A DNA stretch of 35,243 bases. Source: Fundidesulfovibrio soli. GTDB taxonomy: Bacteria > Desulfobacterota > Desulfovibrionia > Desulfovibrionales > Desulfovibrionaceae. The stretch is from positions 67,683-102,925 of the forward strand of contig NZ_JAKZKW010000014.1 in assembly GCF_022808695.1 (NCBI RefSeq), read 5' to 3'. This document shows, one piece after another, positions 7,549 to 23,184 of this stretch. Each line of letters begins with the position of its first letter. Position 1 is the first letter of the stretch. The position numbers and the translations under genes are program-made. The notes under the pieces were generated by a model that was not told the DNA's origin, ran no database searches, and saw only the letters and a list, made by a program, of their open reading frames with translations.

Positions 7549-7554
7549 GGCGGC

Positions 7555-9399
7555 ATGTTCCTCACGCAGCAAGGCGGCTACCATCCCCGGCCGGGGGACC
7601 GCTCCCTGGTGGTCTTCCTGGGGACCGCGCCGGACAAGGCCGTGCCCCGCGAACGGCGGCTGTGGTTCCCAAGCGCCAATGAGGCCGCCTTCGAAGCGGT
7701 GCGCGGCCTGGACCCGGGCCTGCTGCGCCACGGCGTGACCCTGGTGGTGGGCGCCGAGGCCTATGACAGGCACCCGGCCTGGGTGGACGCCGTGCAGAAG
7801 AACCTGGCCTGGCGCTACCTCAAGTACGTCTACCTGCCCCAGACCAGCCCCTCCGTGCCCGACGAGCTGGGCGTGCGCGCCCGGGAGGACGCCCCGGCCC
7901 TGCTCTACCGGGAGATCGCCCTGGCCCGGAACCACCCCCTGCACCTGCGCTGGCCCTTGTGCCGCGCCCTGGAGGGCAAGGGCGGCGCGCCCCTGGCCTG
8001 GCTGTTCCCCTCGCCCAGCCTGCCCCTGGTGCTGCCCGCGCTGGAGGAACTCAAGCGCACCTGCCTCATCGGCTGCATCTCGCTCTCATTGGGATTTTGC
8101 CTGGAAAACGGCGTGGAGCCGGACTTCGTGCTCCAGTTGGACACCGATTTCCGCTACCCCCACCTGCTGCGCCCGGGCCGCAAGCTCAAGAACACCTGGC
8201 TGGTGAGCCTCTCCGGGGCCAACATCTCCGATTCCGCCGGGGACTACGCCGGTGTTTTCTTCATGGAGGCCTTCAACACCACGCTGCTGCCCGACCCCTA
8301 CCGGCTGCGCGAATCCTGGACGGGCTGCGCCATCGCCTGCCTGGGCCTGGCCGAGTGCCTGGGCGCGCCGGACGTGTTCCTGGCCGGGGTGGACCACTCC
8401 TGGCCGGGCGAGGCCTCGGCGGAGCTGTACTACACGCCCGGGGCCAAAGAGCAGACGCCCTCCCAGGACGACCACCCGGAAGCGCCGCTGGTCTGCAGCC
8501 ACCGGCTGGACGCCGACTTGCTGGAGACAAACGCCGTGTTCCCCATGGCGGACGTCAACGGCCGCAAGGTGTGGACTCGCTTCAACTATTTCGGCATCGC
8601 CGCCGAACTGGAGGACGTGGCCCGGCAGATCGGCCGGGAGCGCGGCATGCGCTTCCACCGCCTCTCGGACACGGGCATCCTGGACGCGGCAGTGTTCCTG
8701 CCCGGCGGCCTGCAGGCCCTGGCCGCCCTGCCTGACCTGGACCGCGAAGCTCTGCGGGAGCGCATCGCCTCGGCCGCCAGGGCCGTCCCACCCGTGCGGG
8801 CAGCGGAACTGGCGCAGGCCCTCGGCGAACGCCTGCGCGACGTGGAGACGGCCGCCAGCCTGGCCCGCGAGGCCGAGGAGCGCGGACAACCCGTGCCCGA
8901 GCTTGCCGGTCTGGCCCAGTCGCTTCGCCGAACCGGCGAGTTGGACAGATATTTCCACCTGGAGACCGAGTCCGCCATGTTGGCCGGGCTGGCGGACACC
9001 CTGCGCGCCTGGGCCGAGGCCCTGCGCCGGGCCTTGGGGGTCGCCCTGGCCCATGCCCGCATCCAGGCCGGGGAGCCGCTCCCGGTGCTGGGCCTGCCCG
9101 GTGACGCCGAGGCCTGCGCCCAAGCCCTGGCCGCGCTCTACCCCACTGGCCGCTTCGCGCCGGTGGCCGCCCAGGTGCCCTTCAAGGGGCCAAGCGATTC
9201 AGGAATCCACGGGCTCTACGGATTGCTCGAAGGCGCTGGGGTCGTGGTGGTCAGCGAGGCGCTGGAGCGCGAGTTCGGCTACGCGCTGGCCAACGTTTCC
9301 GCCCGCCGCCTGGCTCCGGCCCGGCTGCTGCTCCATTCATCCGAGGCCGCGCCGGCTACGCAGGAACCGAACCATGCCAGCCAGCAACCAATTTTTTGA
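7555..9399 (+). CDS. Maf/DUF115 flagellin nonulosonic acid transferase-like protein
   Basis: A 614-residue protein whose central part, about residues 165-290, matches the DUF115/MptE-like core of motility accessory factors (Maf): an NGVEPDFVLQLDTD stretch near residue 186 and GVDHSWPGE near 277. Maf proteins transfer pseudaminic or legionaminic acid to flagellin serine/threonine, so its position seven bases after ptmE fits a role as the transferase for the sugar made upstream. The C-terminal third is charged and leucine/alanine-rich, probably helical. The family assignment rests on the DUF115 core; target protein and donor are inferred from context. The start follows a weak GGGCGG. Confidence 0.75.
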   Translation: MFLTQQGGYHPRPGDRSLVVFLGTAPDKAVPRERRLWFPSANEAAFEAVRGLDPGLLRHGVTLVVGAEAYDRHPAWVDAVQKNLAWRYLKYVYLPQTSPSVPDELGVRAREDAPALLYREIALARNHPLHLRWPLCRALEGKGGAPLAWLFPSPSLPLVLPALEELKRTCLIGCISLSLGFCLENGVEPDFVLQLDTDFRYPHLLRPGRKLKNTWLVSLSGANISDSAGDYAGVFFMEAFNTTLLPDPYRLRESWTGCAIACLGLAECLGAPDVFLAGVDHSWPGEASAELYYTPGAKEQTPSQDDHPEAPLVCSHRLDADLLETNAVFPMADVNGRKVWTRFNYFGIAAELEDVARQIGRERGMRFHRLSDTGILDAAVFLPGGLQALAALPDLDREALRERIASAARAVPPVRAAELAQALGERLRDVETAASLAREAEERGQPVPELAGLAQSLRRTGELDRYFHLETESAMLAGLADTLRAWAEALRRALGVALAHARIQAGEPLPVLGLPGDAEACAQALAALYPTGRFAPVAAQVPFKGPSDSGIHGLYGLLEGAGVVVVSEALEREFGYALANVSARRLAPARLLLHSSEAAPATQEPNHASQQPIF

Positions 9400-9452
9400 C
9401 ACCCGCCCCAGAGGCGCCGCCACTCCGCATCCTCGATCCTAAAGGAGACGCC

Positions 9453-10880
9453 ATGCACATCCTGCTCCTCTCCATGCCGACCCCTCACAACCCAAGCAGG
9501 GTCCAGATCGTTCCGCCCATGTCCCTGCTCTGCGTGGGAGGAATGCTCCGCAAGGAAGGCCATACCAGCGAGATCCTCAATCTCGACCTGCTCACCAGGG
9601 TAGGCCTGACGACAGAGGAAGCGAAGATCGAGCATGTGGTCAAGCGGCTCGAAACGGGCGAATTCGATGTTCTCGGCTTGAACTGCCTCGTCTCCTCCCA
9701 GTTCCCCTTCGCGCGGAAGCTGACGGAAGCTGTACGTGCCCGGGCGTTGAAGCTGCCGACCATTCTCGGCGGAATGCACGCCACGCTGTTCGCGCAGGAC
9801 ATCCTCACGAAGTGTCCCTCCTTCGATTACATCATCCTGGGCGAGGGCGAACGGCAGACCTCCAGGCTCATGCGCCACATCCAGAGCCCGACGGACGCCG
9901 TTTTAGCAAACATAGACGGTATCGCGTGGCGGAACGCCTCCGGCACCGTCCATGTCAACAAGCGCATGTCGCCGCTGGCCCCCGCCGAGATGCCGGCTCC
10001 CGCCTGGGACATGCTGCGGATAGATGACTACCGCTCCGACTATTCCAAATGGTACAACCCGAAAGGAAACAACATCACCCTCGTTGCGCCGCTGTACACC
10101 AGCCGCTCCTGCCCGTTGGACTGCACGTTCTGCTCAGCGTTCCACATGATGGGCCGCGGGCTCCGCTTGCGCAGGATTCAAGACATCTTCGACGAGATAG
10201 AATATCTGTACCACGAGCACTGCATTAATTATTTTTCTATCTTTGACGACAACTTCACACTGAACAAACAACACGTCATGCAGTTCTGCGACGAGATACG
10301 CAAACGCAACCTCAACATTCAGTTTGACTCATCATCCGGCTTCAACATCGCCGCTCTTGACGAGCATATGATGGCGGCCATGGCCGAAGCGGGCTGCATC
10401 CACTTCCCCATGCCCATTGAAAGCGGGAACGACAATATCCGGCAGAATGTCATCCACAAGAAGCTGCCCCGAGAAAAAATCTTCGAGATCGCCAGGCTCG
10501 CGAAGAAGCACAACATGCTCACGACAGGCATGTTCATCATCGGCTTCCCCGAGGACACGCCCGAAACGCTGGAAGACACGAGGAGAATGATCCTGGAGTT
10601 GGAGCTGGACAAATACCACGTTTACACCCTCATTCCATTTCCAGGAACGAAGATTTTCAAGCAGGCGCTCAAGGACAACCTCTTCACCGAGAGCATCGAC
10701 CTCTCGAAGTTGTGGGACGGAACATTCAACTTCGAGAAACCGCAAGGTGACTTCGCTTTGAAGCCGTACAACTGTTCCCTCGACACCCTTCGGAAATACA
10801 AGCATGAATTCGGCCAATACTGGTTTTTCAGCGACAGGGTAAAGGCCCTGCAGAAGCAACATTCCTCTGGCACGCCCTGA
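9453..10880 (+). CDS. Cobalamin-binding-type radical SAM enzyme
   Basis: A 475-residue class B-like radical SAM protein. Residues about 1-150 form a Rossmann B12-binding-type domain (LGLNCLVSS, then LGGMHATLF and YIILGEGE) without an obvious DxHxxG lower-ligand motif. The radical SAM cluster is Cys220-x3-Cys224-x2-Cys227 in SRSCPLDCTFC. A later GMFIIGFPEDTPETL is typical of the family. Such enzymes often methylate unactivated carbons or rearrange substrates. The ATG at 9453 has a strong AAAGGAG; an in-frame upstream start at 9396 would overlap the preceding gene and is less likely. Base composition drops in GC relative to the upstream genes, suggesting separate acquisition. The substrate is unknown. 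Confidence 0.82.
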   Translation: MHILLLSMPTPHNPSRVQIVPPMSLLCVGGMLRKEGHTSEILNLDLLTRVGLTTEEAKIEHVVKRLETGEFDVLGLNCLVSSQFPFARKLTEAVRARALKLPTILGGMHATLFAQDILTKCPSFDYIILGEGERQTSRLMRHIQSPTDAVLANIDGIAWRNASGTVHVNKRMSPLAPAEMPAPAWDMLRIDDYRSDYSKWYNPKGNNITLVAPLYTSRSCPLDCTFCSAFHMMGRGLRLRRIQDIFDEIEYLYHEHCINYFSIFDDNFTLNKQHVMQFCDEIRKRNLNIQFDSSSGFNIAALDEHMMAAMAEAGCIHFPMPIESGNDNIRQNVIHKKLPREKIFEIARLAKKHNMLTTGMFIIGFPEDTPETLEDTRRMILELELDKYHVYTLIPFPGTKIFKQALKDNLFTESIDLSKLWDGTFNFEKPQGDFALKPYNCSLDTLRKYKHEFGQYWFFSDRVKALQKQHSSGTP

Positions 10881-11287
10881 CGGTGGACGCGGTTCCCGCC
10901 AGAGCACGTTCTCTAGGAGGGAATTGCCCACCACACGCCGCGTCGCGCCGCACCCGAGGTTCTTCACCAGGGGCAGTCCCCCATTCGCCCCCCCGGCAGT
11001 ATGTTGCTGTCCGTTCTTATGACGGGTCCTGACGCAGGGGCATGCGCCCCTGCCCCACGCCAGAGCCCAAGCATTTCGGCATATATCTTGCTTGAAAACG
11101 CGCACGGACATGGGGAACGAAAAATACTCCTAGCGGCCGCCAGCCCCCGGAAGGGACTGCTGAGCAGAACTGCGGGAGGTTTACAGCCGCAGCCGTACTG
11201 GGGTATGCCTTCATGAATGACGGCACTGTTCCATACGAGAAAAACACGTCGCAGCAATTTCTCTATTCGTTTCCGAAGGAGCCACGC
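10881..11287. other. 407-bp intergenic region before the carrier-protein operon
   Basis: No convincing gene on either strand. A hairpin with 8-bp arms (11034-11041 and 11046-11053, loop ATGC) lies in the middle; no U-run follows it. An AT-rich stretch around 11080-11130 (CATATATC, TTGAAA, AAAAATACT) could hold a promoter, but I cannot place paired -35/-10 boxes with normal spacing. The gap and the change of composition suggest that a new transcription unit begins at 11288. Confidence 0.5.
11034..11053. repeat. GC-rich hairpin
   Basis: GCAGGGGC and GCCCCTGC form a perfect 8-bp stem around ATGC. It lies about 155 nt after the radical SAM gene and about 235 nt before the acyl carrier protein gene. 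It may be an inefficient terminator; there is no T-tract. Confidence 0.45.
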
Positions 11288-11536
11288 ATGAACGCCGTCG
11301 ATGCCCTGACTACAGTCAACACGGCCCTGCAAAAGGTGAAAAACGATCCGAATATTGCAGTCAGCATGGACACAGACATGTTGCATGACAAGATACTCGA
11401 CTCGCTTGACTGCCTTATGCTCCTGATGGAGCTTGACGAGTTGTGTGGTTTCTCCGTGCCTGAAGACATCGACCTAGTCGCAGGCGGGTATTTCAAGGTG
11501 GACAAGCTTATCTCACTCCTGGCTGACAAAGAGTAG
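11288..11536 (+). CDS. Acyl carrier protein (first copy)
   Basis: An 82-residue acidic protein of normal carrier-protein length. The 4'-phosphopantetheine attachment site is Ser39 in ILDSLDCL, the classical DSL motif at the start of helix II. ATG 11288 follows GAAGGAG at a good distance; the in-frame extension to 11213 lacks family similarity. It is a stand-alone carrier away from any fatty-acid synthesis genes and close to a KAS III-like enzyme and an adenylating enzyme, so it is probably dedicated to making a special acyl group. It is divergent enough that automated annotation may miss it. Confidence 0.85.
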   Translation: MNAVDALTTVNTALQKVKNDPNIAVSMDTDMLHDKILDSLDCLMLLMELDELCGFSVPEDIDLVAGGYFKVDKLISLLADKE

Positions 11537-11573
11537 ACCGGACCCTGAAACATCCTCCAAGCAAGGAAGAACT

Positions 11574-12182
11574 ATGGCCGACCCTCTGCGTATCCGGTTG
11601 CCGTTCCTGGGTGACAGACACTACCTCCACGGCTCCACACTCTTCGAGGCGCTGCTCCACTACTCCCAGGGCGTGCCTCCTCTCGATTTCAAGTTCAAGG
11701 GCTTCATCACCTCCAACATGCTCGAACTCCGCACAGGCAAGGAGCCGGAGCTGAACGCCCTCTCTCCCGTGGCGACGCTCACCTGGGGCGAGGAGCGGGA
11801 TTGCATCTGCGCCCTGGAGCTGCCTGCGGAGCACCCCATCGAGTCCATCCCGCTCCCCGAGGACGAGCTCATGGCGGCCATGCCCTTCGCCGACGACCGC
11901 GTGACCTACGACAAGCCCTGGCCCATGGGCTTCGCCGACACCCTTTTCTGCCTGCTCAAGAAGCTGGAGCTGCAATACAAGGCGAACGTGGGCGGCCAAT
12001 GGCTCTTCGGCGGGATGCAGCTAACCAGCCTGCCCCGCAAGGACGCGCCCATCTCCGCCGTCAAGGACCGCCTCCTGCCCCAGTGCCGGCTGCTGCGGAT
12101 GCAGCTGACTGCCGACGGCGTCCCCTTCGGGGTGGCCTACACCTCCTGGGTGCCCAACGACAAAATGCAGCCGGGCAATTGA
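11574..12182 (+). CDS. Unrecognised protein in carrier-protein operon
   Basis: A 202-residue protein I do not recognise. It has no signal peptide, no clear membrane segment and no metal-binding cysteine cluster. Visible stretches are RHYLHGSTLFEALLHY near the N-terminus and FKGFITSNMLEL around residue 40. A good AAGGAAGA precedes ATG 11574 and codon use resembles its neighbours, so it is a real gene. It lies between an acyl carrier protein and an acyltransferase, 8 bp upstream of the latter. A hotdog-fold enzyme acting on acyl-ACP (thioesterase or dehydratase) is one possibility, but I see no motif that proves it. Confidence 0.8.
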   Translation: MADPLRIRLPFLGDRHYLHGSTLFEALLHYSQGVPPLDFKFKGFITSNMLELRTGKEPELNALSPVATLTWGEERDCICALELPAEHPIESIPLPEDELMAAMPFADDRVTYDKPWPMGFADTLFCLLKKLELQYKANVGGQWLFGGMQLTSLPRKDAPISAVKDRLLPQCRLLRMQLTADGVPFGVAYTSWVPNDKMQPGN

Positions 12183-12189
12183 GGCCGTC

Positions 12190-12897
<708 letters not shown>

Positions 12898-12903
12898 ACT
12901 GCG

Positions 12904-13650
12904 ATGGAATCTCCCCAGGAGTTCAAGGAGCGCTGCGCCGAGGAAATCGCCGCCATGGGCCGGGACGAAGGGTTCGAGCGCTCCAGCCAGGAGTGGATGC
13001 AGCGCGCCGAGCTGCACCGCTACACCTATCATTTCGAATGGCTGGGCAGGCCCATCATCCAGTTCCCGCAGGACATCTTGGCCATGCAGGAGCTTATCTG
13101 GACCGTGCGCCCCGAGGTCATCGTCGAGACCGGGATCGCCCACGGCGGGTCCCTGGTGTTCTATGCCTCCATGCTGGAGCTCCTGGTCCAGTGCGGCATG
13201 ATCCAGCACGGCCGGGTCATCGGCGTGGATATCGACATCAGGACCCACAACCGCCAGGCCATTGAAGCGCACCCCCTGGCCAGGCGCATCACCATGGTTC
13301 AAGGCTCGAGCGTCGCTCCCGACACCGTGGCCGCAGTCCGCGCCCTGGCCGGGCGGAACGGCCCCTGCCTGCTGGCCCTGGACTCGAACCACACCCACGG
13401 CCACGTGCTCGCCGAACTGCGCGCCTACGCGGACCTCGTGACGGTTGGGAGCTACTGCGTGGTGTTCGACACGGCGATCGAGCATTCGCCCAACCCCGTG
13501 CAAGGCAGGGGCTGGGGCAAGGGAAACAATCCCCTCACGGCCGTCGACGAATTCCTGGCTGGCGACGAGCGCTTCGCCCAGGACAGCTCCATCACGGACA
13601 AGCTCCGCATAAGCGAATGCCCCGGCGGCTATCTCAAGCGCGTGCGCTGA
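12904..13650 (+). CDS. CmcI/RhmI-type protein (cephalosporin hydroxylase family)
   Basis: A 248-residue protein with the CmcI fold signature: IVETGIAHGGSLVFYASML near residue 75, then VIGVDIDIRTHNR and LDSNHTHGHV. The family (PF04989, cephalosporin hydroxylase/rhamnosyl methyltransferase) has a Rossmann SAM-binding fold; some members methylate sugars or small molecules, so methyltransfer is the likelier activity. It is 6 bp after the acyltransferase gene and 19 bp before the adenylating enzyme, clearly in the same operon. A substrate cannot be read from sequence; an acyl-carrier intermediate or the finished sugar are both possible. Confidence 0.82.
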   Translation: MESPQEFKERCAEEIAAMGRDEGFERSSQEWMQRAELHRYTYHFEWLGRPIIQFPQDILAMQELIWTVRPEVIVETGIAHGGSLVFYASMLELLVQCGMIQHGRVIGVDIDIRTHNRQAIEAHPLARRITMVQGSSVAPDTVAAVRALAGRNGPCLLALDSNHTHGHVLAELRAYADLVTVGSYCVVFDTAIEHSPNPVQGRGWGKGNNPLTAVDEFLAGDERFAQDSSITDKLRISECPGGYLKRVR

Positions 13651-13669
13651 CTCCGGACAGGACAGACTG

Positions 13670-15223
13670 ATGCTCAACATAGTGGATCGCTTCCTGGCCT
13701 CCGCCCGAAGGGCTCCTGACGACCCGGCCCTGTCGTTCGCGGGGGGGGACGTCTCCTACGGGGAGCTGCTGGGAGAGGCCCGGCGGATAGCCCGGGCATT
13801 GGATTCGGCCTGCCGCACGGAAACCGTCACCGTCTGGGCCGATAAGAGCCTGTCCACCTATGCGGGGGTCCTGGGCGCCCTGCTGTCGGGGAAGACCTTT
13901 GTACCGCTCAACCCCCGTTTTCCCTTGGAGCGCACCCAGGCCATGCTGCGGGCCAGCGGAGCCGACACGGTGGTCGCCTCCGCCGCAGGCCTGTCCGCCG
14001 CCATGCGGGCCGCCGTGAACACCGGCGCGGGCACGATCATCTGCCCCGACAAGCCTGCCGGGTCCAAGGAGGAATCCCTCGCCATCCTCGGCCGCGACTG
14101 CCTGCACACTAGCTCCGGCGGAGTTGACCGGCCGGAGCGGTGCAGCCCGAAGATGTACATCATGTTCACTTCGGGCAGCACCGGCAGGCCCAAGGGGGTT
14201 CCGGTGCTCCACGCCAACGTGGAGCCGTACCTCGACACCATCGCCGGGTTCTACGGCCTGTCCAGCCAGGACCGCTGCTCCCAACTGTTTGACCTTACCT
14301 TCGACCTCAGCGTGCATGACTTGTTCGCCACATGGCAGTCCGGGGCGTGTCTGTGCGTGCCGACAGCGGAAGAACGGATTTTCCCGGCGCGTTACATCCA
14401 GCGTGCCGGGCTGACGTCGTGGTTCAGCGTCCCGTCGCTGCTGCTGAGCATGGCCCGCCTCAAGCAGCTCGGGCCGGATTCCTTCCCTGGCATCAGGGTG
14501 AGCCTGTTCTGCGGCGAGGGGCTCCCGCACAGCTTAGTGCGCCAGTGGGCCGTGGCCGCGCCCAACGCCATTATTGAGAACCTCTACGGACCCACCGAAT
14601 GCACCATCGCGATCAGCCGACATGCCTGGTCCCCCGGGGTCGAAGCCTGCGTCAACGGGCTCGTGCCCATGGGCCGGACGTTCATCGGGCAGCATTTCAG
14701 CGTCCGGGACGAATCGGGCGAGGTCCTGCCGGCAGGAAGCAGAGGGGAGCTCTGGCTGAGCGGCTCGCAGCTCACCCCGGGCTATCTGGACCAACCGGAG
14801 CAGACCGCCAAGGCCTTCGCCGAGGAGGGCGGCCGGAGATGGTACAGAACCGGCGACCTCGTGCTGGAGGATGAGGACGGCACTCTGCATTTCATCGAGA
14901 GGATCGACCATCAGGTCAAGATCCGCGGATACCGTGTGGAACTCGTGGAGATAGAGAACCACCTGGCCGGGCTGCCGGGCGTGCACGGGGCCGTCGTCTC
15001 TCCGGCGCGAAATGCGGATGGCGTCTGCGTCCATCTCCACGCCTTCATCGTTGGCTCGGCCGACCCCGGCGAGGTGCTCCTCACATGCCGGACCAGATTT
15101 CCAGACTACATGGTGCCGCGCAGGGTGGAGTTCCTCACGGAATTCCCCCTGAACGCCAACGGCAAGATCGACCGCCCGAAACTGGAGCAAAAGGCGTCCA
15201 ACGCGTATGAACATTCTCACTGA
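13670..15223 (+). CDS. DltA-like AMP-forming adenylating enzyme
   Basis: A 517-residue ANL-superfamily enzyme. The P-loop is MFTSGSTGRPKG near residues 165-176, followed by NLYGPTECTI, YRTGDLV and the catalytic lysine in NANGKIDR near the C-terminus. Length and lack of fused domains resemble D-alanine-carrier protein ligase DltA and stand-alone NRPS adenylation domains. It should activate an amino or hydroxy acid as the AMP-ester and load it on the phosphopantetheine of a carrier protein, most likely the one encoded next (its gene overlaps the end of this one by 17 nt). The acid used is not predictable by eye. Confidence 0.88.
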   Translation: MLNIVDRFLASARRAPDDPALSFAGGDVSYGELLGEARRIARALDSACRTETVTVWADKSLSTYAGVLGALLSGKTFVPLNPRFPLERTQAMLRASGADTVVASAAGLSAAMRAAVNTGAGTIICPDKPAGSKEESLAILGRDCLHTSSGGVDRPERCSPKMYIMFTSGSTGRPKGVPVLHANVEPYLDTIAGFYGLSSQDRCSQLFDLTFDLSVHDLFATWQSGACLCVPTAEERIFPARYIQRAGLTSWFSVPSLLLSMARLKQLGPDSFPGIRVSLFCGEGLPHSLVRQWAVAAPNAIIENLYGPTECTIAISRHAWSPGVEACVNGLVPMGRTFIGQHFSVRDESGEVLPAGSRGELWLSGSQLTPGYLDQPEQTAKAFAEEGGRRWYRTGDLVLEDEDGTLHFIERIDHQVKIRGYRVELVEIENHLAGLPGVHGAVVSPARNADGVCVHLHAFIVGSADPGEVLLTCRTRFPDYMVPRRVEFLTEFPLNANGKIDRPKLEQKASNAYEHSH

Positions 15224-15485
15224 AGAGCGTATCCTGGGGACCATACTGTCCGCGCTGGGGAAGATCGCCGCAACCAAATTCATGGACGCGCCTCTCGACC
15301 CTGACACGAACATTCTGGAGGCCGGGTTCGACTCGTTTGATTTCGCCACCCTCATCCCCGACATCGAGGAGGATCTTGGCATCGCCATCGACCTTGCCGA
15401 CGCGGACCTCTCCGAGGTCATCACGATCAGCGGCCTGGCGGCCTTCATCGCCAGACAGAACGCGTCAGGCGCTGAACAGCCATGA
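15207..15485 (+). CDS. Acyl/peptidyl carrier protein (second copy)
   Basis: A 92-residue acidic carrier protein. Ser43 in AGFDSFDF is the phosphopantetheine site (DSF rather than the usual DSL). It begins inside the 3' end of the adenylating-enzyme gene and its stop overlaps the next start as ATGA, so translation of the three genes is probably coupled. By position it is the likely partner of the DltA-like enzyme, in the manner of DltC, whereas the carrier at 11288 may serve the KAS III-like enzyme. Confidence 0.85.
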   Translation: MNILTEERILGTILSALGKIAATKFMDAPLDPDTNILEAGFDSFDFATLIPDIEEDLGIAIDLADADLSEVITISGLAAFIARQNASGAEQP

Positions 15486-16198
15486 CCACCGACTGGGAGC
15501 GCCTGGATGCACTTCCCCTGCCCGGGGTCAACGGCTGCTGGCAAACGTGCGGGGGGTATTGCTGCGGCAATTTCGACGGCACGGGCGCAGGCTCCGCAGT
15601 GACGATCCCCTTCTTCCCCGGCGAATTCGAAGCCTACGCGCGCTCGCCCATCCGCCAGGGCACTAAGGTGACGCATCGGCGTTTCCCCTTGCCTGACGGC
15701 AGATCCCTGAAGATCGATTTCCTGCACTGCCAGTGCAACGGGCTATGCGAGCCGCACGGCTCCCGCCCGCTCGTCTGCAAGCTATATCCGTACTTTCCCC
15801 AATGCGACGCAGAGGGCAACCTCACCGGCATCGACGTCTGTTCCCTCGCCGACGTCTACTTCGAAGAGGTGTGCGGCCAGCGCAAATGCACCGTCTTCGA
15901 CCCCGAAGCAGCAGGCGACGAACGAATTCGTGCCGTACTCCAGGCGCTTGTTGAAGAGCCATGCAACATATTGTACGTGCGGCTGGCCACGCTTATACGC
16001 GAACACTTGCGCACGGCCCTCAAAGATTTCCCGCGTGAGCCCGACCCTTCCCTAGCTGGCAAGCTGCTCGCGCGGTTCAACATGCTGCTGTTTTCCCACA
16101 CCCCCTGGAGAACCGCCGCGTTTAGGAAGGAATTCGCGGAATCATACAACACCCTGCTCGGCAGGTTCGGACCCAACATCCTCCATGAAGGGAGCTGA
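15482..16198 (+). CDS. YkgJ-family cysteine-cluster protein
   Basis: A 238-residue protein with a cysteine-rich N-terminal half: TCGGYCCGNF near residue 20, CQCNGLCEPHGSRPLVCKLYP near residue 85 and a later DVCSLAD and CGQRKC. This matches the YkgJ/CxxCxxCC family, thought to bind zinc or an iron-sulfur cluster and related to flagellin lysine N-methylase FliB. No catalytic role is established for most members. Overlap with both neighbours (ATGA with the carrier protein, stop close to the KAS III start) places it firmly in the pathway. It may be a redox or methyl-transfer component; that is speculation. Confidence 0.78.
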   Translation: MTTDWERLDALPLPGVNGCWQTCGGYCCGNFDGTGAGSAVTIPFFPGEFEAYARSPIRQGTKVTHRRFPLPDGRSLKIDFLHCQCNGLCEPHGSRPLVCKLYPYFPQCDAEGNLTGIDVCSLADVYFEEVCGQRKCTVFDPEAAGDERIRAVLQALVEEPCNILYVRLATLIREHLRTALKDFPREPDPSLAGKLLARFNMLLFSHTPWRTAAFRKEFAESYNTLLGRFGPNILHEGS

Positions 16199-16202
16199 CG
16201 CC

Positions 16203-17252
16203 ATGAGCGACGATACTTTTCCCTCCAGGCGCGTGACGATTCAGAATGTGGCGTTTGTCGGCTGCAGGGCCGTGGTGCCGGGGCATGCGGTCACGATGGA
16301 CGAACTGGTCGCGCTGGCGCCGGACGAGAAATCGCGCGAGGAACTGCTGCGGGCGGCCCAGATGTCCGGCCTGGACGTGCGCTACAAGGCGAAACCGGCC
16401 ACCACGGCCGGAGACATGTGCGTCGCCGCCGCCCGAAAGCTGCTCGAAGATCTGCGGTGGAGCCCCGACAGCGTCGACCTCCTCGTTGTAGCCAACGTCA
16501 CCCCGGACGACCTCATCCCCCCCACGGGGTACCAGATTCACAGCTGCCTCGGGCTCTCCAAGCAATGCGTCGTGCTGGACACGATCATCGGGTGCTCGGG
16601 CTACACCCACGGGTTGTTCCTGGCCGCCTCCCTGCTTGAAAAAGGCGCGTTGAAGCGGGCGCTTCTTGTGACGGGCGACACCCTCTCGCGGACCATCGCC
16701 CCCGCCGACCTGAAGTCGGGCTCCCTGCTCGGCGACGCCGGGACCGCCACGGCCCTGGAATTCACGGAAGGCACGGCTCCAATGTACGTGCTGCTCGGTT
16801 CGGACGGGTCCAACTCCCAATGCATCAGGCAACCCGGCAGGGGCTACAGGGAGTCCGACAGCCCGCCGTATTTCCAGATGGACGGAGTCAAGGTGTTCAC
16901 GTTCTCCCACGGCATCGTTCCCAAGCTGCTTCAGGCCACCATGCGGCATGCGGACACCTCGATCGAACAGATCGATTCGGTCTGCCTGCACCAGGCCAAC
17001 CTGATGATCCTGGACGCCATCTCCAAGCAAGGCCGTTTGCCCCGCGAGAAGGTTGTCAACACCTTGCGCCTGTACGGCAATTGCGGCTCGGCCTCCATCC
17101 CGCTCGCCCTCTGCGAGACCTTTTCCTCGTCCGGCCACGAAGGGCCGTTGCGGCTGCTCCTCGCCGGGTTTGGGCTTGGACTCAGCTGGAGCAGCGTCTT
17201 GATGCAGGCGGCCGCCAATTCCTTCGGGGCCGTCATGCACGAGGACCTCTAG
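16203..17252 (+). CDS. KAS III-like 3-oxoacyl-ACP synthase
   Basis: A 349-residue thiolase-fold condensing enzyme of the FabH type. The triad is complete: Cys131 in IIGCSGYTHG, His263 in CLHQAN and Asn293 in YGNCGSAS. It should start chains by condensing an acyl thioester with a carrier-bound malonyl unit. ATG 16203 has AAGGGAG at good spacing; an in-frame ATG at 16185 overlaps the preceding gene and lacks a site. FabH and ACP homologues occur in the Pseudomonas flagellin glycosylation islands, where they serve acyl decoration of the glycan, so a similar role here fits. It is not with other fatty-acid synthesis genes. Confidence 0.87.
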   Translation: MSDDTFPSRRVTIQNVAFVGCRAVVPGHAVTMDELVALAPDEKSREELLRAAQMSGLDVRYKAKPATTAGDMCVAAARKLLEDLRWSPDSVDLLVVANVTPDDLIPPTGYQIHSCLGLSKQCVVLDTIIGCSGYTHGLFLAASLLEKGALKRALLVTGDTLSRTIAPADLKSGSLLGDAGTATALEFTEGTAPMYVLLGSDGSNSQCIRQPGRGYRESDSPPYFQMDGVKVFTFSHGIVPKLLQATMRHADTSIEQIDSVCLHQANLMILDAISKQGRLPREKVVNTLRLYGNCGSASIPLALCETFSSSGHEGPLRLLLAGFGLGLSWSSVLMQAAANSFGAVMHEDL

Positions 17253-17303
17253 CTCCGCGACAACCAGACGCTCCGTACGCAACATCTTTCACCAAGGCGC
17301 ACA

Positions 17304-18335
17304 ATGCTTTCTGACGTCTCGATCATCATCCCGACCAAGGATCGCCAGATCACTGTGCAGGAAGTGCTTGACTATTATGAAGGGACAAACGCCAACATCA
17401 TCATCGCTGACGCGTCCGACACAGCCATGGAAAACGGTGTTTTGCAGCGCAAAAACCTGCGCGTGACGTATTTCAGCGACACAACGCGGTCCTTCATAGA
17501 CAGAGTCAACTACTCGTTCCAATTCATTGACACGCCCTACACGGTTCTCCGCGCAGACAGAAGGCATATCGCCACCACAGGAATCCGCAGCGTCTGCGAC
17601 TTCCTGAACGCCAACCATGACTACAGCACCGCCCAGGGAAGGTGGTACGTTTTTGACAATGGATGTATCCTCAAGCGCTACACAGCGTACTCTGAGACGT
17701 TTGTTTCCGAGATCGAGGACACGGACGAGCGCGTCAAGAAGACCATGGCCATCTTCACGTCCACCATGTATGCTGTCTACCGGACGGAAACATTCAAGGA
17801 CGTGATGTCTTTCTTCCGCGACATCAAGACGGGCGTCATTATCGAACTGTGCGCGCATATGCTTTCGATGTATTCCGGGAAGCACAAGTCGCTTCCCGTG
17901 CCCTACGCCTTCATCGCGCCCTATGAAGCCTGCAGGCCGTTCAGCAAGCGCCTGACGTCGGGCAACTACACCACTCAGACAGAACAACTCGAACAATGGC
18001 CGGATCTGGGACACCGCATAGCCAGCCACCTCGGTCTGGATGACCCCAAGGCCTCGGCCCTGTTCGACGAGGCTCTCGAAATCTACTACATGGCCTTCTT
18101 CGCCTATACCGAAACCAACGACTGTAACCTGACCCTTGCAAACCGCTTTTTCAGCCCCTACTTTGACAAGGTTTTTTCCTGGTATGCTCCTTTGATTCTC
18201 AAGAAGGTGCTCCACCAAATCGAAAGGCATCCCGCTGACGACCTCTTCAATGAGCTTTCCGAGGTGCAGAAGAGGGATTTGCTTGCGATTCTGGCGCTTG
18301 GAAGGATACGTGTCACAGATGATTCAACGCAATGA
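17304..18335 (+). CDS. Probable GT2-like glycosyltransferase
   Basis: A 343-residue protein beginning SIIIPTKDRQITVQEVLDYY, the opening strand and loop of a GT-A glycosyltransferase, with LRADRRHI near residue 90 as the candidate metal-binding acidic motif. The overall look resembles the glycosyltransferase family known as TIGR00180/TIGR04440. There are no membrane segments. The C-terminal third is helical and of unknown role. The gene uses more AT-rich codons than the operon before it, suggesting different ancestry. It could attach the CDP-linked sugar made by the downstream genes. The donor and acceptor are unknown. Confidence 0.65.
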   Translation: MLSDVSIIIPTKDRQITVQEVLDYYEGTNANIIIADASDTAMENGVLQRKNLRVTYFSDTTRSFIDRVNYSFQFIDTPYTVLRADRRHIATTGIRSVCDFLNANHDYSTAQGRWYVFDNGCILKRYTAYSETFVSEIEDTDERVKKTMAIFTSTMYAVYRTETFKDVMSFFRDIKTGVIIELCAHMLSMYSGKHKSLPVPYAFIAPYEACRPFSKRLTSGNYTTQTEQLEQWPDLGHRIASHLGLDDPKASALFDEALEIYYMAFFAYTETNDCNLTLANRFFSPYFDKVFSWYAPLILKKVLHQIERHPADDLFNELSEVQKRDLLAILALGRIRVTDDSTQ

Positions 18336-18416
18336 CCTGGGTTCAAGCCGTGACACCGCGCGGTCCGTGCCCCTGCATGGGCCGTCCCTGGTCATAGTCA
18401 TGCCTGGAGGGGCTGC

Positions 18417-19184
18417 ATGAAAACCGTGATTTTGGCGGGAGGCCTTGGTACACGTATCAGCGAAGAATCACACCTCAAGCCGAAGCCCATGATAGAAATC
18501 GGCGGGAGGCCGATGCTATGGCATATTATGAAGATATACTCCCATTACGGCATACATGACTTCATCATATGCCTCGGCTACAAGGGATATGTCGTAAAAG
18601 AATACTTTACAAACTATTACATGCACATGTCGAATATCACGGTGAATATGGCAGACAACTGCCTCATCGTGCATGAATGCCATGCCGAGCCATGGAGCGT
18701 TACACTCATCGACACAGGGCAAGATACTTTGACTGGCGGACGGTTAAAGCGCGTCCGCGACTACATTGGTGACAGCACTTTCTGTTTCACATACGGCGAC
18801 GGTGTCAGCGATGTGAATATAGAATCAGTGATCAAATTCCATCAGTCGCACGGCCGTCATGCGACAGTCACGGCCATCCAGCCGCCCGGCCGATACGGCG
18901 CCCTTGAGGTGGAGAACGGCGCGGTGGCGAGCTTCCAGGAGAAACCCGCAGGCGACGGGGCTTGGATCAACGGCGGTTTCTTCGTTCTTGAGCCTTCGGT
19001 TTTCGACTACATAGACGGAGACTACACCAGCTTCGAGCAGGACCCCCTGCAGAACTTGGCAGCGGCGGGGCAGCTGATGGCCTACCAGCACAAGGGGTTC
19101 TGGCAGGCCATGGACACCCTGCGCGACAAGAACGCCCTTGAAAGATTGTGGGAAACGAATCCCCCCTGGAAGATATGGAAATAG
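18417..19184 (+). CDS. rfbF: Glucose-1-phosphate cytidylyltransferase
   Basis: A 255-residue RfbF/DdhA-type nucleotidyltransferase. The nucleotide-binding loop is AGGLGTRISEES, followed by KPKPMIEIGGRPMLWHIM, the TYGDGVSDV metal-binding aspartates and WINGGFFVLEP. It converts glucose-1-phosphate and CTP into CDP-glucose, the entry to CDP-6-deoxyhexoses. A strong GGAGGGG precedes the ATG. The first two thirds are visibly more AT-rich than the last third and than the next gene. It overlaps the following dehydratase gene by 10 bp. Confidence 0.92.
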   Translation: MKTVILAGGLGTRISEESHLKPKPMIEIGGRPMLWHIMKIYSHYGIHDFIICLGYKGYVVKEYFTNYYMHMSNITVNMADNCLIVHECHAEPWSVTLIDTGQDTLTGGRLKRVRDYIGDSTFCFTYGDGVSDVNIESVIKFHQSHGRHATVTAIQPPGRYGALEVENGAVASFQEKPAGDGAWINGGFFVLEPSVFDYIDGDYTSFEQDPLQNLAAAGQLMAYQHKGFWQAMDTLRDKNALERLWETNPPWKIWK

Positions 19185-20233
19185 GATTCCTCGGAAAGGC
19201 CTACCGTGGCCGCAGGGTGCTCGTCACAGGCCACACCGGCTTCAAAGGGAGCTGGCTCTCCCTGTGGCTTTCGCACTTGGAGGCCGACACCGCCGGCTTG
19301 GCCCTGGCCCCGGAGGAAGGCGCCCATTTCAGCTCCCTCTGTCTGCAAATGCGTAGTGTCATTGGCGACATACGCGACATGGATGCCCTGGCCGGGGTTT
19401 TCGCCGCAGCCCGGCCGGAAATCGTCTTCCATTTGGCCGCGCAGCCGTTGGTGCGAAGGTCCTATCGTCAGCCAGTCGACACGTTCGACGTCAACGTCAT
19501 GGGGACCGTCAACGTCCTTGAGGCCTGCCGCGCCTGCCCGGATGTGCGGGCCGTCGTGGTCGTCACGTCAGACAAATGCTACGCCAACAACGAATGGGTC
19601 TGGGGCTATCGGGAGAACGACCGGCTCGGCGGGAAGGACCCCTACAGCGCTTCCAAAGCCTGCGCAGAACTGGTCGCGGCGAGTTACCGGGACGCGTTTT
19701 TCCACTCTGGCGGACCGCTCCTGGCCACGGTGCGCGGCGGCAACGTAATCGGCGGGGGCGACTGGTCCGAGGACAGGCTGATCCCCGACTTGGTGAGGGC
19801 CGTCGGGGCTGGAGCCTCGCTGGAAGTCCGCAATCCCCTGGCCCGCCGGCCCTGGCAGCACGTGCTGGACTGCCTCGGCGGGTATCTGTGCCTCGGGGCG
19901 AAGTTGCTCGATGAGCGGAAGGATTTCGCGCAGGCCTGGAATTTCGGCCCCGACGCGGCGAAGGCCGTGACCGTCGGCGAACTGCTGGACCGCATCGCCT
20001 CCATCTGGCCCGCCGTGCGCTGGCACGTGGCGGAAAGCCCCGAACTCCGTGAGGCGCAGGCTCTGTCGATCGATTCGGCGAAAGCCCGCGCCCTGCTCAA
20101 GTGGGAGCCTGTCTGGAGCCTGGAGACCGCGCTGGCCCGCACCGGGCAATGGTACAAGGCCTTCATGGAGGATAATCGGGTGGAGAGCCACGCGCAGCTC
20201 GATGCCTATCTCGCCGACGCGGGCGGCAGGTGA
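19175..20233 (+). CDS. rfbG: CDP-glucose 4,6-dehydratase
   Basis: A 352-residue extended SDR of the RfbG/DdhB type. Marks are TGHTGFKGSWLSLWL at the NAD site, VVVTSDKCYAN in the active site, Tyr157/Lys161 in YSASK and RGGNVIGGGDWSEDRL. It forms CDP-4-keto-6-deoxyglucose. I choose ATG 19175 since the product then begins close to the usual family N-terminus; a GTG at 19148 would add nine residues. Either start overlaps rfbF, and the stop overlaps the epimerase start, so the CDP genes are tightly coupled. Confidence 0.92.
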   Translation: MEIGFLGKAYRGRRVLVTGHTGFKGSWLSLWLSHLEADTAGLALAPEEGAHFSSLCLQMRSVIGDIRDMDALAGVFAAARPEIVFHLAAQPLVRRSYRQPVDTFDVNVMGTVNVLEACRACPDVRAVVVVTSDKCYANNEWVWGYRENDRLGGKDPYSASKACAELVAASYRDAFFHSGGPLLATVRGGNVIGGGDWSEDRLIPDLVRAVGAGASLEVRNPLARRPWQHVLDCLGGYLCLGAKLLDERKDFAQAWNFGPDAAKAVTVGELLDRIASIWPAVRWHVAESPELREAQALSIDSAKARALLKWEPVWSLETALARTGQWYKAFMEDNRVESHAQLDAYLADAGGR

Positions 20234-20784
20234 TGACGATCATTCCGACCCCTGTCGACGGGCTGTTCGAAGTCTCGCATACCCGCTTCACCGACAGCCG
20301 GGGGCTGTTCGAGCGCCTGTTCTGCATCGAGGCTCTGGTCTCAATCCTGAAGGGACGGCACATCGTCGCGGTCAACCACTCCAAGACCGCATCCATCGGG
20401 GCGCTGCGGGGCCTTCACTATCAGATGCCTCCCCATGCGGAGATGAAGCTCGTCTGCTGCCTGCGCGGGAGCGTGCATGACGTGGCCGTGGACATCCGCC
20501 AGGGGTCTTCGACCTTCCTTCGCCACCACACGACAATTCTCACCGGGGACAACGCGCGCATGGTCGTCATTCCCGAGGGGTTCGCCCACGGCTTCCAGGT
20601 GCTGGAGCCCGACAGCGAGCTTCTGTACCTGCACACCGCGCCGTATGCCCCGGCATCGGAACGGGGCCTGGCCTGGAACGACCCGCGCCTTGCCATCGAA
20701 TGGCCCGGCCCCGTGACGGATATCTCCCAGCGCGATGGCGGCCATGCCTTCATCAACGACAGTTTTCAGGGGGTTCCCGCATGA
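20233..20784 (+). CDS. RmlC-like 3,5- (or 3-/5-) epimerase
   Basis: A 183-residue cupin-fold sugar epimerase of the RfbC/RmlC family. The catalytic base is His62 in LRGLHYQ, the conserved lysine follows in MKLVCCLRG, and Tyr138 in HTAPYAP is the proton donor; VIPEGFAHGF and AWNDPRLAIEWP are family signatures. As both catalytic residues are present, it is likely active. Next to rfbF-rfbG its substrate should be CDP-4-keto-6-deoxyglucose rather than the dTDP sugar. One-position epimerisation, as in NovW-type relatives, cannot be excluded. ATG 20233 overlaps the rfbG stop; GTG 20230 is an alternative. Confidence 0.87.
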   Translation: MTIIPTPVDGLFEVSHTRFTDSRGLFERLFCIEALVSILKGRHIVAVNHSKTASIGALRGLHYQMPPHAEMKLVCCLRGSVHDVAVDIRQGSSTFLRHHTTILTGDNARMVVIPEGFAHGFQVLEPDSELLYLHTAPYAPASERGLAWNDPRLAIEWPGPVTDISQRDGGHAFINDSFQGVPA

Positions 20785-22004
20785 ACTGCCGCCACTGCGG
20801 TACTCCCCTGACGGATACCGTTCTCGATCTGGGCTGCGCCCCCCCGTCCAACTCCTACCTGAACAAGGCTGACCTGAACTCGCCCGAGACGCACTACCCT
20901 CTGCGCCTCTTCGCTTGCAGCCGCTGCTTCCTGGTGCAGACGGAGGATTTCACCCGGGCGGACATGCTCTTCCACCCAGACTACGCCTATTTTTCATCCG
21001 TTTCCTCCACGTGGTGCGCGCACGCGGCCCGCTACGCCGCCATGATCCGGCGCAAGCTCCGGCTCGGGCCCGGGAGCTTCGTCCTCGAGGTGGCCTCCAA
21101 CGACGGCTATCTGCTCCGCAACTTCGTCGAGATGGGGATACCCTGCCTGGGCATCGAACCCACGGACCGCACCGCCGAGGCTGCGGAGCGCCTCGGCATC
21201 CCCGTCATCCGCGAGTTCTTCGGGCTCGGCCTGTCTAACAGGCTCACCGATGAGGGCCGGCAGGCCGACCTGCTCGTTGGCAACAACGTCTTCGCACACG
21301 TTCCGGACATCAACGATTTCACCGCGGGAATCAGGGAGGCCCTCAAGCCCGACGGGGTGGTCACGCTGGAGTTCCCGCACCTTTTGAAGCTTCTGCGCCT
21401 GGGGCAGTTCGATACTGTCTACCACGAGCACTACTCGTACCTCTCGCTGCGGACGGTTTGCGCCATATTTGAATCGGAGGGTCTCCGCGCCTGGCACGTG
21501 GAGCAGCTGCCCACGCACGGCGGAAGCTTGCGGGTCTACGGCTGTCGCCGCGACTCCTCACGTGCCAGGAACGCCTCCGTGTCCCGCGTGCTGGAAACGG
21601 AGCGCCGCTTCGGGCTGGACAGGATGGAGACCTACGGAGGCCTGCAGGCCAAGGCCGACCGGATCAAGGACGACCTTCTAGCCGCCCTGATCCGGCTGAA
21701 ACGCCGAGGTCTGCGCCTGGCCGCTTACGGGGCGGCGGCCAAGGGCAATACGTTGCTCAACTATGCGGGGATCCGGGCCGACCTTGTACCCTACGTCTGC
21801 GACGCCGCGCCCTCCAAACAGAACCGTTTCCTGCCCGGTTCGCGCCTGCCGATCCTGCCTGTGGAAACCCTGCGGGAGGACAAGCCCGACGTCATCCTGG
21901 TTTTGCCCTGGAACATCGTCTCTGAAATCGTGGAGCATCACGGCTACGTCCGGCAGTGGGGAGGGCGTTTCCTCACGGCCGTGCCCAGCCTGAAATTCCG
22001 TTAG
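20781..22004 (+). CDS. Sugar C-methyltransferase (NovU/TylC3 type)
   Basis: A 407-residue protein with three recognisable parts: an N-terminal zinc-binding site (Cys3, Cys6, Cys46, Cys49), a SAM-dependent Rossmann methyltransferase domain (LEVASNDGYLL, then LVGNNVFAHVPD and the YHEHYSYLSL motif) and a C-terminal domain with YGAAAKGNTLLNY. This is the architecture of NDP-4-keto-deoxysugar C-methyltransferases such as NovU and TylC3, which add a methyl branch at C5 or C3. It starts at ATG 20781 overlapping the epimerase stop. The carbon methylated here cannot be told from sequence alone. Confidence 0.87.
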   Translation: MNCRHCGTPLTDTVLDLGCAPPSNSYLNKADLNSPETHYPLRLFACSRCFLVQTEDFTRADMLFHPDYAYFSSVSSTWCAHAARYAAMIRRKLRLGPGSFVLEVASNDGYLLRNFVEMGIPCLGIEPTDRTAEAAERLGIPVIREFFGLGLSNRLTDEGRQADLLVGNNVFAHVPDINDFTAGIREALKPDGVVTLEFPHLLKLLRLGQFDTVYHEHYSYLSLRTVCAIFESEGLRAWHVEQLPTHGGSLRVYGCRRDSSRARNASVSRVLETERRFGLDRMETYGGLQAKADRIKDDLLAALIRLKRRGLRLAAYGAAAKGNTLLNYAGIRADLVPYVCDAAPSKQNRFLPGSRLPILPVETLREDKPDVILVLPWNIVSEIVEHHGYVRQWGGRFLTAVPSLKFR

Positions 22005-22013
22005 CGAAGCGCC

Positions 22014-23129: not shown

Positions 23130-23184
23130 CACCCCCTCCCGCAGCCGCTCCGCGCCACGCCTCAGCTACGTCTCAAGGCGCACT

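What the first reader, a model, noticed from the sequence alone, without database searches (positions are those of the whole stretch)
11288..17252. Carrier-protein acyl-assembly module inside a flagellin/surface glycosylation island
Seen: two stand-alone carrier proteins with intact serine sites (Ser39, Ser43), a DltA-like adenylating enzyme, a KAS III-like enzyme with a full Cys131/His263/Asn293 triad, a NeuD-type acyltransferase, a CmcI-type protein, a YkgJ-type protein and an unknown protein, in tightly packed coupled genes. Known: FabH and ACP homologues occur in Pseudomonas flagellin glycosylation islands and serve acyl decoration. Inference: an amino or hydroxy acid is activated, extended and methylated on a carrier, then placed on an amino sugar made by the genes at 18417-23129. 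The particular combination with a DltA-like loader, YkgJ and CmcI may be a new pathway.
Basis: partly seen in the sequence, partly recalled or inferred. Interest (0 to 1): 0.8.

Follow-up and report, generated by a model that had tools for sequence, protein, structure and literature searches.

The report
Amino-acid/acyl cassette that decorates surface sugars
A sulfate-reducing bacterium carries a swappable set of genes that appears to load a small amino acid and a short fatty-acid-like unit onto carrier proteins and attach them to an unusual surface sugar, using two protein families that have no name yet.

Summary
The eight genes are real, intact and tightly packed: carrier 1, an unnamed protein (U), a NeuD-like acyltransferase, a CmcI-family methyltransferase, an adenylating enzyme (A), carrier 2, a Cys-rich protein (Y) and a KAS III with a Cys-His-Asn triad. 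They lie in a 13.9-kb cassette that the nearest congener lacks at the same locus. The same eight-gene order recurs in another genus (G133), again near a sugar C-methyltransferase and aminotransferase. The set is two modules: A+carrier+Y (Y in 8 of 288 family genomes, A beside it in 8 of 8) and U+KAS III+N-acyltransferase (U in 7 of 288, both partners in 7 of 7); three genomes hold both. A most resembles solved entry 4oxi (AlmE, glycine; recalled). The nearest known pathway is the Pseudomonas syringae viosamine island, here without its reductase and with an amino-acid branch. Best reading: a glycyl/alanyl-containing N-acyl group is built on carriers and put on the amino group of a CDP-linked 3-C-methyl sugar. 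A flagellin target is not shown. "YkgJ" is not confirmed (0 of 7 relatives scanned reach PF03692); Y's predicted fold has no PDB match at E<=0.001. New variant of a known kind; Y and U are the new parts.

The parts
9334..23206 (.). Swapped cassette: not present at this locus in congener G135, whose homologous flanks (window 1140-9333 at 91.6% DNA identity; 23207-25677 at 89-91%) enclose 7.3 kb of other genes
   Evidence: G+C 0.622 against 0.697 and 0.678 in the flanks
9444..10880 (+). B12-binding radical SAM protein at the head of the cassette
   Evidence: PF04055 77 bits, PF02310 66 bits
11288..11536 (+). ACP1, stand-alone carrier, Ser39
   Evidence: no Pfam match; weak DltC-model match, 23.5 bits against cut-off 68; 59% identical to G133 ACP1
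11574..12182 (+). U, unnamed 202-aa protein, motif LPFLGxRxYLHxST
   Evidence: 0 of 7 members reach a Pfam cut-off; with KAS III and an N-acyltransferase in 7 of 7 loci
12190..12897 (+). NeuD-like left-handed beta-helix acyltransferase, candidate N-acyl transferase; usual catalytic His aligned with Glu
   Evidence: 34% identical to the acetyltransferase of the B. glumae vio genes
12904..13650 (+). CmcI/rhamnosyl O-methyltransferase family protein, candidate sugar O-methyltransferase
   Evidence: PF04989 277 bits, cut-off 23.2; NF045824 only 80.5 of 400
13670..15223 (+). A, stand-alone amino-acid adenylating enzyme, predicted code DLHFLCLIAK (Gly or another small amino acid)
   Evidence: TIGR01733 327 bits, cut-off 317
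15207..15485 (+). ACP2, stand-alone carrier, Ser43
   Evidence: PF00550 36.7 bits, cut-off 20.8
15482..16198 (+). Y, Cys-rich protein with eight cysteines invariant in 8 sequences (19, 23, 27, 28, 83, 89, 99, 136; CX3CX3CC start), no named family
   Evidence: AlphaFold2 pLDDT 79.5, pTM 0.82, no PDB fold at E<=0.001
16185..17252 (+). KAS III-like condensing enzyme, Cys-His-Asn triad
   Evidence: PF08541 81 bits, PF08545 51 bits
17304..18335 (+). TIGR00180-family glycosyltransferase
   Evidence: TIGR04440 105 bits, cut-off 70
18417..19184 (+). Glucose-1-phosphate cytidylyltransferase (RfbF)
   Evidence: TIGR02623 455.6 bits, cut-off 300
19148..20233 (+). CDP-glucose 4,6-dehydratase (RfbG)
   Evidence: TIGR02622 455 bits, cut-off 278
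20230..20784 (+). RmlC-like 3,5-epimerase
   Evidence: PF00908 183 bits; TIGR01221 148.1 bits, just under its cut-off 155.75
20775..22004 (+). Sugar C-methyltransferase
   Evidence: PF08421, PF08484; no NCBIfam match
22014..23129 (+). DegT-type sugar aminotransferase (VioA-like role)
   Evidence: PF01041 412.6 bits; below every NCBIfam cut-off listed; 34% identical to B. glumae VioA

Best explanation
The cassette makes a CDP-linked 4-amino-3-C-methyl-4,6-dideoxy sugar and acylates its amino group with a carrier-built group that contains an amino acid. A adenylates glycine (or alanine) and loads it on one carrier, most simply ACP2. Y then works on that aminoacyl-carrier. KAS III condenses an acyl-CoA with a malonyl carrier to a 3-ketoacyl group on the other carrier, with U as its dedicated partner. 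The acyl unit and the aminoacyl unit are joined, and the NeuD-like enzyme transfers the product to the sugar amine; CmcI O-methylates the sugar, and the glycosyltransferase at 17304 passes it on. Shown here: intact genes and motifs, conserved order, the two separable modules and their partners, the sugar genes. Inferred: substrate, which carrier takes which group, joining of the two units, order of steps, positions on the sugar, target polymer. Y's step is a guess: it goes with A domains of quite different predicted codes, so it more likely acts on the alpha-amine or the thioester than on a side chain; an iron-sulfur-dependent methyl transfer like that of FliB is one candidate.
For: The eight genes are collinear in G133, with aminotransferase and C-methyltransferase next to them. 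Y in 8 of 288 family genomes, with an A domain within 3.3 kb in 8 of 8 and a carrier or carrier-like protein in 8 of 8 (the carriers of the three MBOAT operons and of G197 were assigned by size, place and mutual similarity, not by a Pfam scan). U in 7 of 288 family genomes, with KAS III in 7 of 7, an N-acyltransferase in 7 of 7 (NeuD-like 4, AAC(3)-type 3) and a carrier seen in 6 of 7 (the seventh contig ends inside KAS III). Both in 3 genomes, in one locus each; 0.19 expected, P = 4.7e-4 if genomes were independent, which they are not, and computed after the fact. A code identical in window, G133 and the two Solidesulfovibrio plasmids although these are 45% identical to the window's A, and identical to 4oxi at 7 of the 9 code positions visible; [quoted passage not shown] VioA, VioS and VioB counterparts. 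Known glycans carry such groups: N-[(S)-3-hydroxybutyryl]-D-alanyl on Qui4N in E. coli O123 and 5-oxoprolyl derivatives (table in PMC10609480, one passage); N-acetyl-D-alanyl on Qui3N and Qui4N in Pseudoalteromonas (PMC3210612, passages).
Against: No enzyme that obviously joins the two units is present. Each module also occurs without the other (U without Y in 4 of 7 genomes, Y without U in 5 of 8), so they need not serve one product. A DegT aminotransferase was matched in only 4 of the 7 U loci, and the 20-kb G192 stretch matched none of eight sugar genes of the window. The NeuD-like protein lacks the usual His. In G133, 34 kb gave no dehydratase (rfbG) match and only a weak, 24% match to the cytidylyltransferase. 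Nothing biochemical was done.
Confidence: 0.5

Rival explanations
1. Two independent decorations: KAS III/U/ACP1/NeuD makes a viosamine-island-type N-acyl group, while A/ACP2/Y separately places an aminoacyl group elsewhere on the glycan, as AlmEFG and Dlt do.
For: The modules are separable. A+carrier+Y is found without KAS III or U in the fetched stretches beside an AAC(3)-type transferase on two Solidesulfovibrio plasmids and in three operons with an MBOAT protein and a third shared protein. U+KAS III occurs in four genomes where no Y was found, with no A match in the stretches fetched, 8 to 20 kb each.
Against: In the window and G133 only one N-acyltransferase (NeuD-like) is present in the set, and the two modules are interleaved (ACP1, U, NeuD, CmcI, A, ACP2, Y, KAS III) rather than side by side.
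Confidence: 0.3
2. An ordinary viosamine-type N-(3-hydroxybutyryl) or N-acetoacetyl sugar, with A, ACP2 and Y silent or accessory.
For: VioA/VioS/VioB-like proteins are present; flagellin islands of Aeromonas have an ACP, a reductase and an AMP-dependent synthetase, and one of Azospirillum has ACP, ligase, SDR and KAS III beside a flagellin gene.
Against: A, ACP2 and Y are intact, overlap their neighbours and are kept in G133 at 37-45% identity. No vioR-like reductase lies in the cassette; the only SDR match in the window is PtmA-like at 36-1031, in the part shared with G135, and 34 kb of G133 gave no match to six SDR queries. A housekeeping FabG could still supply the step.
Confidence: 0.12
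3. A small secreted metabolite made by a minimal NRPS/PKS hybrid that happens to sit in a glycan locus.
For: A, carriers and KAS III are also parts of such pathways; A's second-best solved relative over the binding region, 6akd (recalled as IdnL7), loads a small amino acid in macrolactam synthesis (function recalled).
Against: No condensation or thioesterase domain among the module's proteins; the sets in the window and G133 stand with sugar genes and a NeuD-like transferase, and the G197 set with an AAC(3)-type transferase and a surface-polysaccharide protein.
Confidence: 0.06

Closest known systems
Viosamine island of Pseudomonas syringae flagellin (vioA, vioM, vioT, vioS, vioB, vioR, acp; PMC3927599) and what I take to be its counterpart on Burkholderia glumae pBGF3
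   Same: Sugar aminotransferase, KAS III, carrier, NeuD-like N-acyltransferase, methyltransferase, glycosyltransferase; DegT2, KAS III and NeuD-like proteins are 34, 29 and 34% identical to the B. glumae ones.
   Different: CDP- rather than dTDP-sugar with a C-methyltransferase; no ketoreductase; adds an amino-acid-activating enzyme, a second carrier, Y and U. VioM was not compared with the CmcI-family protein.
AlmEFG of Vibrio cholerae (glycine on lipid A) and DltABCD (D-alanine on teichoic acids)
   Same: Stand-alone A enzyme plus stand-alone carrier that delivers a small amino acid to a surface polymer; A resembles 4oxi (recalled as AlmE) in its binding residues.
   Different: No AlmG or DltB/DltD counterpart in the module; delivery is proposed to a sugar amine through a NeuD-like enzyme. 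Relatives of Y do sit in operons with an MBOAT (DltB-type) protein.
Flagellin glycosylation islands of Aeromonas (group II) and Azospirillum brasilense p3
   Same: ACP with an AMP-dependent synthetase or ligase and a reductase (plus KAS III in Azospirillum) near nonulosonate genes; in Azospirillum next to flagellin.
   Different: Their ligases are described as fatty-acid type and they have reductases. In the plasmid collection, which holds the Azospirillum record, U found no match and Y only the two Solidesulfovibrio plasmids. The window is not beside a flagellin gene.
FliB flagellin lysine methyltransferase
   Same: Cys-rich N-terminus (FliB CX4CX3CC, Y CX3CX3CC) and eight conserved cysteines (PMC8598068, passages).
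   Different: No detectable sequence relation: none of the 7 Y proteins scanned matched any NCBIfam model at E<=10; NF038110, the FliB model, is an NCBIfam model.

Membership tests
Viosamine-island type N-acyl sugar pathway | Sugar aminotransferase + KAS III + carrier + VioB-like N-acyltransferase together | tested here: met
Viosamine-island type N-acyl sugar pathway | 3-oxoacyl reductase VioR in the cluster | tested here: not met
   no SDR match in the cassette or in 34 kb around the G133 copy, six SDR queries at E<=1e-3
Viosamine-island type N-acyl sugar pathway | Product decorates flagellin | not testable with these tools
   0 of 6 flagellin-domain matches on the window's contig; the assembly is in 41 contigs
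DltA (TIGR01734, NF003417) | Score over the curated cut-off | tested here: not met
   269 of 560 and 268 of 476 bits
Amino-acid adenylation domain (TIGR01733) | Score over cut-off; Asp at the amine-binding position; A10 Lys | tested here: met
   327 against 317 bits; D212, K499 (positions by recalled GrsA numbering)
AlmE-like glycine-loading enzyme | Same substrate-binding residues | tested here: inconclusive
   7 of 9 visible positions identical to 4oxi; identity of 4oxi as AlmE is recalled; no assay
PF03692 CxxCxxCC (YkgJ) | Score over the gathering cut-off | tested here: not met
   0 of 7 proteins scanned (the near-duplicate on pDCAR1 was not); best 12.8 bits against 23
FliB-type [4Fe-4S] methyltransferase | Match to NF038110; iron-sulfur cluster; SAM-dependent methyl transfer | tested here: not met
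   no NCBIfam match at E<=10 in the 7 Y proteins scanned; cluster and activity not testable
KAS III (FabH superfamily) | PF08541/PF08545 and Cys-His-Asn triad | tested here: met
NeuD/PglB/VioB acyltransferase (TIGR03570) | Score over cut-off and catalytic His | tested here: not met
   132 of 160.8 bits; His aligned with Glu

The most novel reading that the evidence does not exclude
KAS III makes acetoacetyl-carrier, A makes glycyl- or alanyl-carrier, U and/or Y join and cyclise them (N-acetoacetyl-aminoacyl thioester, intramolecular aldol), giving a 3-hydroxy-3-methyl-5-oxoprolyl (from Gly) or 3-hydroxy-2,3-dimethyl-5-oxoprolyl (from Ala) group on the sugar amine. That would be a genetic route to the 5-oxoprolyl decorations known chemically from V. 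cholerae O5 and Plesiomonas O74, and Y would be a new type of Cys-rich enzyme acting on aminoacyl-carriers. Carbon count and the missing reductase fit; nothing else tests it.
Probability: 0.15. Interest if true: 0.75.

Novelty: new variant of a known kind. Interest (0 to 1): 0.52.

Why it matters
It ties two biochemistries that are usually separate, amino-acid loading (Alm/Dlt) and KAS III-type acyl loading (viosamine islands), into one exchangeable surface-sugar cassette, and it singles out two unnamed protein families with constant partners in the family surveyed: Y with an A domain, whatever its predicted amino acid and whatever the acyltransferase nearby, and U with KAS III. Both are clear targets for in vitro work, and the cassette is a candidate route to amino-acid-containing N-acyl groups for which my searches found structures but no genes.

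Tried and rejected
A profile of U found nothing credible in the PDB (best E 0.011, a short stretch of a ribosomal protein). Fold search of Y: no match at E<=0.001 in a library of 350,542 chains (best E 0.85). FliB: 0 of 99 family genomes, but no control genome rang either, so this says nothing about absence. Scan of genome contigs with A: one remote hit, 23% identical, not followed. Viral contigs with U: none. U in 395 phylum genomes: own genome only; G133 and G192, known positives, were not among the matches and so presumably not drawn. PF03692 over the order: 238 of 247 genomes, uninformative. Plasmid searches with U: none. Of three congeners whose right-flank locus was fetched, only G135 was comparable; in G202 and G183 nothing but the MobA-HD gene matched. 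Literature: no paper in the held library has all three of flagellin glycosylation, acyl carrier protein and adenylation domain, or three of the four O-antigen terms; the oxoprolyl strings occur in two glycan papers, one of them only in its reference list, and the passages shown give no genes; PMC3210612 was searched for six terms and holds no 'oxoprol'. PMC6309461 was seen in a listing only. The library lacks most subscription journals. E. coli O123 genes could not be located, so the link from structure to genes stays untested. Kansosamine as the sugar was considered (2-O-methyl, 3-C-methyl, 4-N-acyl; structure recalled, only the name seen in PMC4403928); it fits the gene set but is not tested.


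Full report
What is there. Eight + strand ORFs fill 11288-17252: ACP1, U, NeuD-like, CmcI family, A, ACP2, Y and KAS III. Pfam and NCBIfam support hexapeptide transferase, PF04989 methyltransferase, AMP-binding, PP-binding (ACP2 only) and KAS III. ACP1, U and Y match no Pfam family credibly. Downstream lie a glycosyltransferase, CDP-glucose cytidylyltransferase and dehydratase, both over their cut-offs, an RmlC-like epimerase just below its cut-off, a C-methyltransferase and a DegT aminotransferase. Together these should give a CDP-4-amino-3-C-methyl-4,6-dideoxy sugar (inference from the families).

It is a cassette. The window is the right end of contig C14 of its genome. The nearest congener by the MobA-HD protein, G135 (89% identical, the other four matches 46-52%), shares window 1140-9333 at 91.6% DNA identity and 23207-25677 at 89-91%, but has other genes between them: an epimerase-2-like protein, a B12 radical SAM protein, a carbamoyltransferase and a 429-aa protein without Pfam match. 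So 13.9 kb in the window stand where 7.3 kb stand in the congener, and neither U nor Y was found elsewhere in G135. The insert has lower G+C, 0.622 against 0.697 and 0.678. The left flank encodes a nonulosonate set, legionaminate-type in my reading (its synthase is over the NeuB/NnaB cut-off), and an MptE-like protein of the kind called Maf (recalled).

Relatives. The window U protein finds matches in 3 of 247 order genomes including its own. G133, of another genus in the same family, has ACP1, U, NeuD-like, CmcI, A, ACP2, Y and KAS III in exactly this order at 33-60% identity, preceded there by C-methyltransferase and aminotransferase, which in the window follow 3.5 kb downstream. After its KAS III come a CDP-glycerol glycerophosphotransferase and an NTP transferase. 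A similar pair lies about 2.5 kb from a shorter set, A + carrier + Y + AAC(3)-type transferase, on plasmids of Solidesulfovibrio magneticus and S. carbinolicus, with a ParA and a hypothetical gene between.

Module one, A + carrier + Y. A profile of eight Y proteins finds those eight genomes, and no other, in the 288 genomes held for the family (E<=1e-5); a four-sequence profile had found the same eight among 327 order genomes (E<=1e-10). At most 8 or 9 candidates per genome were scored, so weak members may be missed. In all eight an A domain lies within 3.3 kb and a carrier or carrier-like protein nearby. Except in G197, where two other genes intervene, A and Y are neighbours or are separated only by a carrier and/or one further protein. 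Three of the eight are Dlt-like operons: A, a small carrier-like protein, an MBOAT protein (over its Pfam cut-off in two, by 36-41% identity in the third) and a third shared protein that I call DltD-like from its place only, since the two copies scanned have no Pfam match. The predicted A codes are DLHFLCLIAK in window, G133 and both plasmids, DLFFLCLVYK in G197, and quite different in the three Dlt-like operons. Y therefore goes with different predicted amino acids and stands near three kinds of acyltransferase (NeuD-like, AAC(3), MBOAT). That argues for a step common to aminoacyl-carriers. Y has eight invariant cysteines; its model is fair (pLDDT 79.5, pTM 0.82) and has no PDB fold match at E<=0.001.

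Module two, U + KAS III + carrier + N-acyltransferase. A four-sequence U profile finds 7 of 288 family genomes at E<=0.01, three of them new. All seven have a KAS III nearby (next gene in five) and a NeuD-like (4) or AAC(3)-type (3) transferase; six show the carrier, the seventh contig ends inside KAS III. The G197 member is only weakly similar to the window's (no useful BLAST match; hhalign probability 71%), but the profile that includes it pulled in the further members. Both modules occur in 3 genomes where 0.19 would be expected (P = 4.7e-4 without correction for kinship and computed after the fact). Against a fixed tie to sugar genes: a DegT aminotransferase was matched in 4 of the 7 U loci, and the G192 stretch matched none of eight sugar genes of the window.

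Substrates. Over the binding region A's best solved match is 4oxi (117 bits), then 6akd (110.5) and 8k4r (106.5), with DltA 3e7w at 50. 4oxi is, from memory, AlmE. [quoted passage not shown] Glycine or alanine is therefore the prediction. KAS III with Cys-His-Asn should condense an acyl-CoA with a malonyl carrier (general knowledge of the family). The cassette has no ketoreductase, whereas the P. syringae viosamine island has vioR (PMC3927599, passages) and B. glumae pBGF3 has an SDR near its vioA and KAS III.

Chemistry that would fit. A table in PMC10609480 (one passage) lists N-[(S)-3-hydroxybutyryl]-D-alanyl on Qui4N of E. coli O123, 3-hydroxy-2,3-dimethyl-5-oxoprolyl on Qui3N of Plesiomonas O74 and 3-hydroxy-3-methyl-5-oxoprolyl on Fuc3N of V. 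cholerae O5; N-acetyl-D-alanyl groups occur in Pseudoalteromonas (PMC3210612, passages). The two 5-oxoprolyl groups have the carbon skeletons of alanine or glycine plus acetoacetate closed by an aldol step (my inference). I found no gene assignment for them, in a library that lacks most subscription journals. This is offered as the most novel reading, not as the result.

Observation right, apart from the YkgJ label. Interpretation right in outline (amino acid activation, carrier, amino sugar), unproven for flagellin, and probably wrong in placing the methylation on the carrier. The cassette is a new variant of the viosamine-type N-acyl-sugar pathway combined with an Alm/Dlt-type loader. What deserves bench work is Y and U.

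Noticed in passing
L042 2480-9765 (G135), matching window 9334-23206: Congener has a different cassette at the same place: epimerase-2-like protein, B12 radical SAM, carbamoyltransferase and a 429-aa protein without Pfam match; both cassettes contain a B12 radical SAM gene.
   Followed up: partly
L026 9970-15317, L027 5691-11286, L028 8505-13792: Dlt-like operons (A, small carrier-like protein, MBOAT, a third protein without Pfam match in the two copies scanned) with the Cys-rich protein Y in three genomes of the window's family; A codes differ from the window's and from each other.
   Followed up: partly
L015 11935-14790; L016 11944-14679: Leisingera and Phaeobacter plasmids carry one-protein versions, an A domain of nearly the same code (DLHFLCWISK, DLHFLCWIAK), a carrier-like stretch seen by eye and a C-terminal part not examined, inside polysaccharide loci.
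   Followed up: no
L045 5767-11254 (Azospirillum brasilense Sp7 p3): Pseudaminate synthase, ACP, ligase, SDR and KAS III directly upstream of a flagellin gene; its KAS III is 42% identical to the window's.
   Followed up: partly
L047 8037-9975 (Azospirillum lipoferum AZO_p6): KAS III next to a CmcI-family methyltransferase, with neuB after two further genes.
   Followed up: no
L013 15993-22589 and L014 15537-22589: On both Solidesulfovibrio plasmids the A/carrier/Y set lies near a CDP-glycerol transferase and a cytidylyltransferase gene (a 207-bp CDS on pDMC1), a pair also seen in G133; a Tn3-family transposase gene is next to it on pDMC1.
   Followed up: partly
L029 3643-4143: Short A-domain gene (166 aa) directly before a carrier, besides an intact A gene at 5019-6614 in the same locus.
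   Followed up: no
L011 6538-12258 (G192): U/KAS III/carrier beside a second KAS III, an SDR, a DUF4910 protein and AAC(3)-like proteins, with no match to the window's sugar genes in 20 kb.
   Followed up: partly
window 12190-12897 and L009 14624-15325: NeuD-like protein in both full cassettes has Glu in a GED motif where two solved relatives have the VDHD/LSHG histidine.
   Followed up: partly
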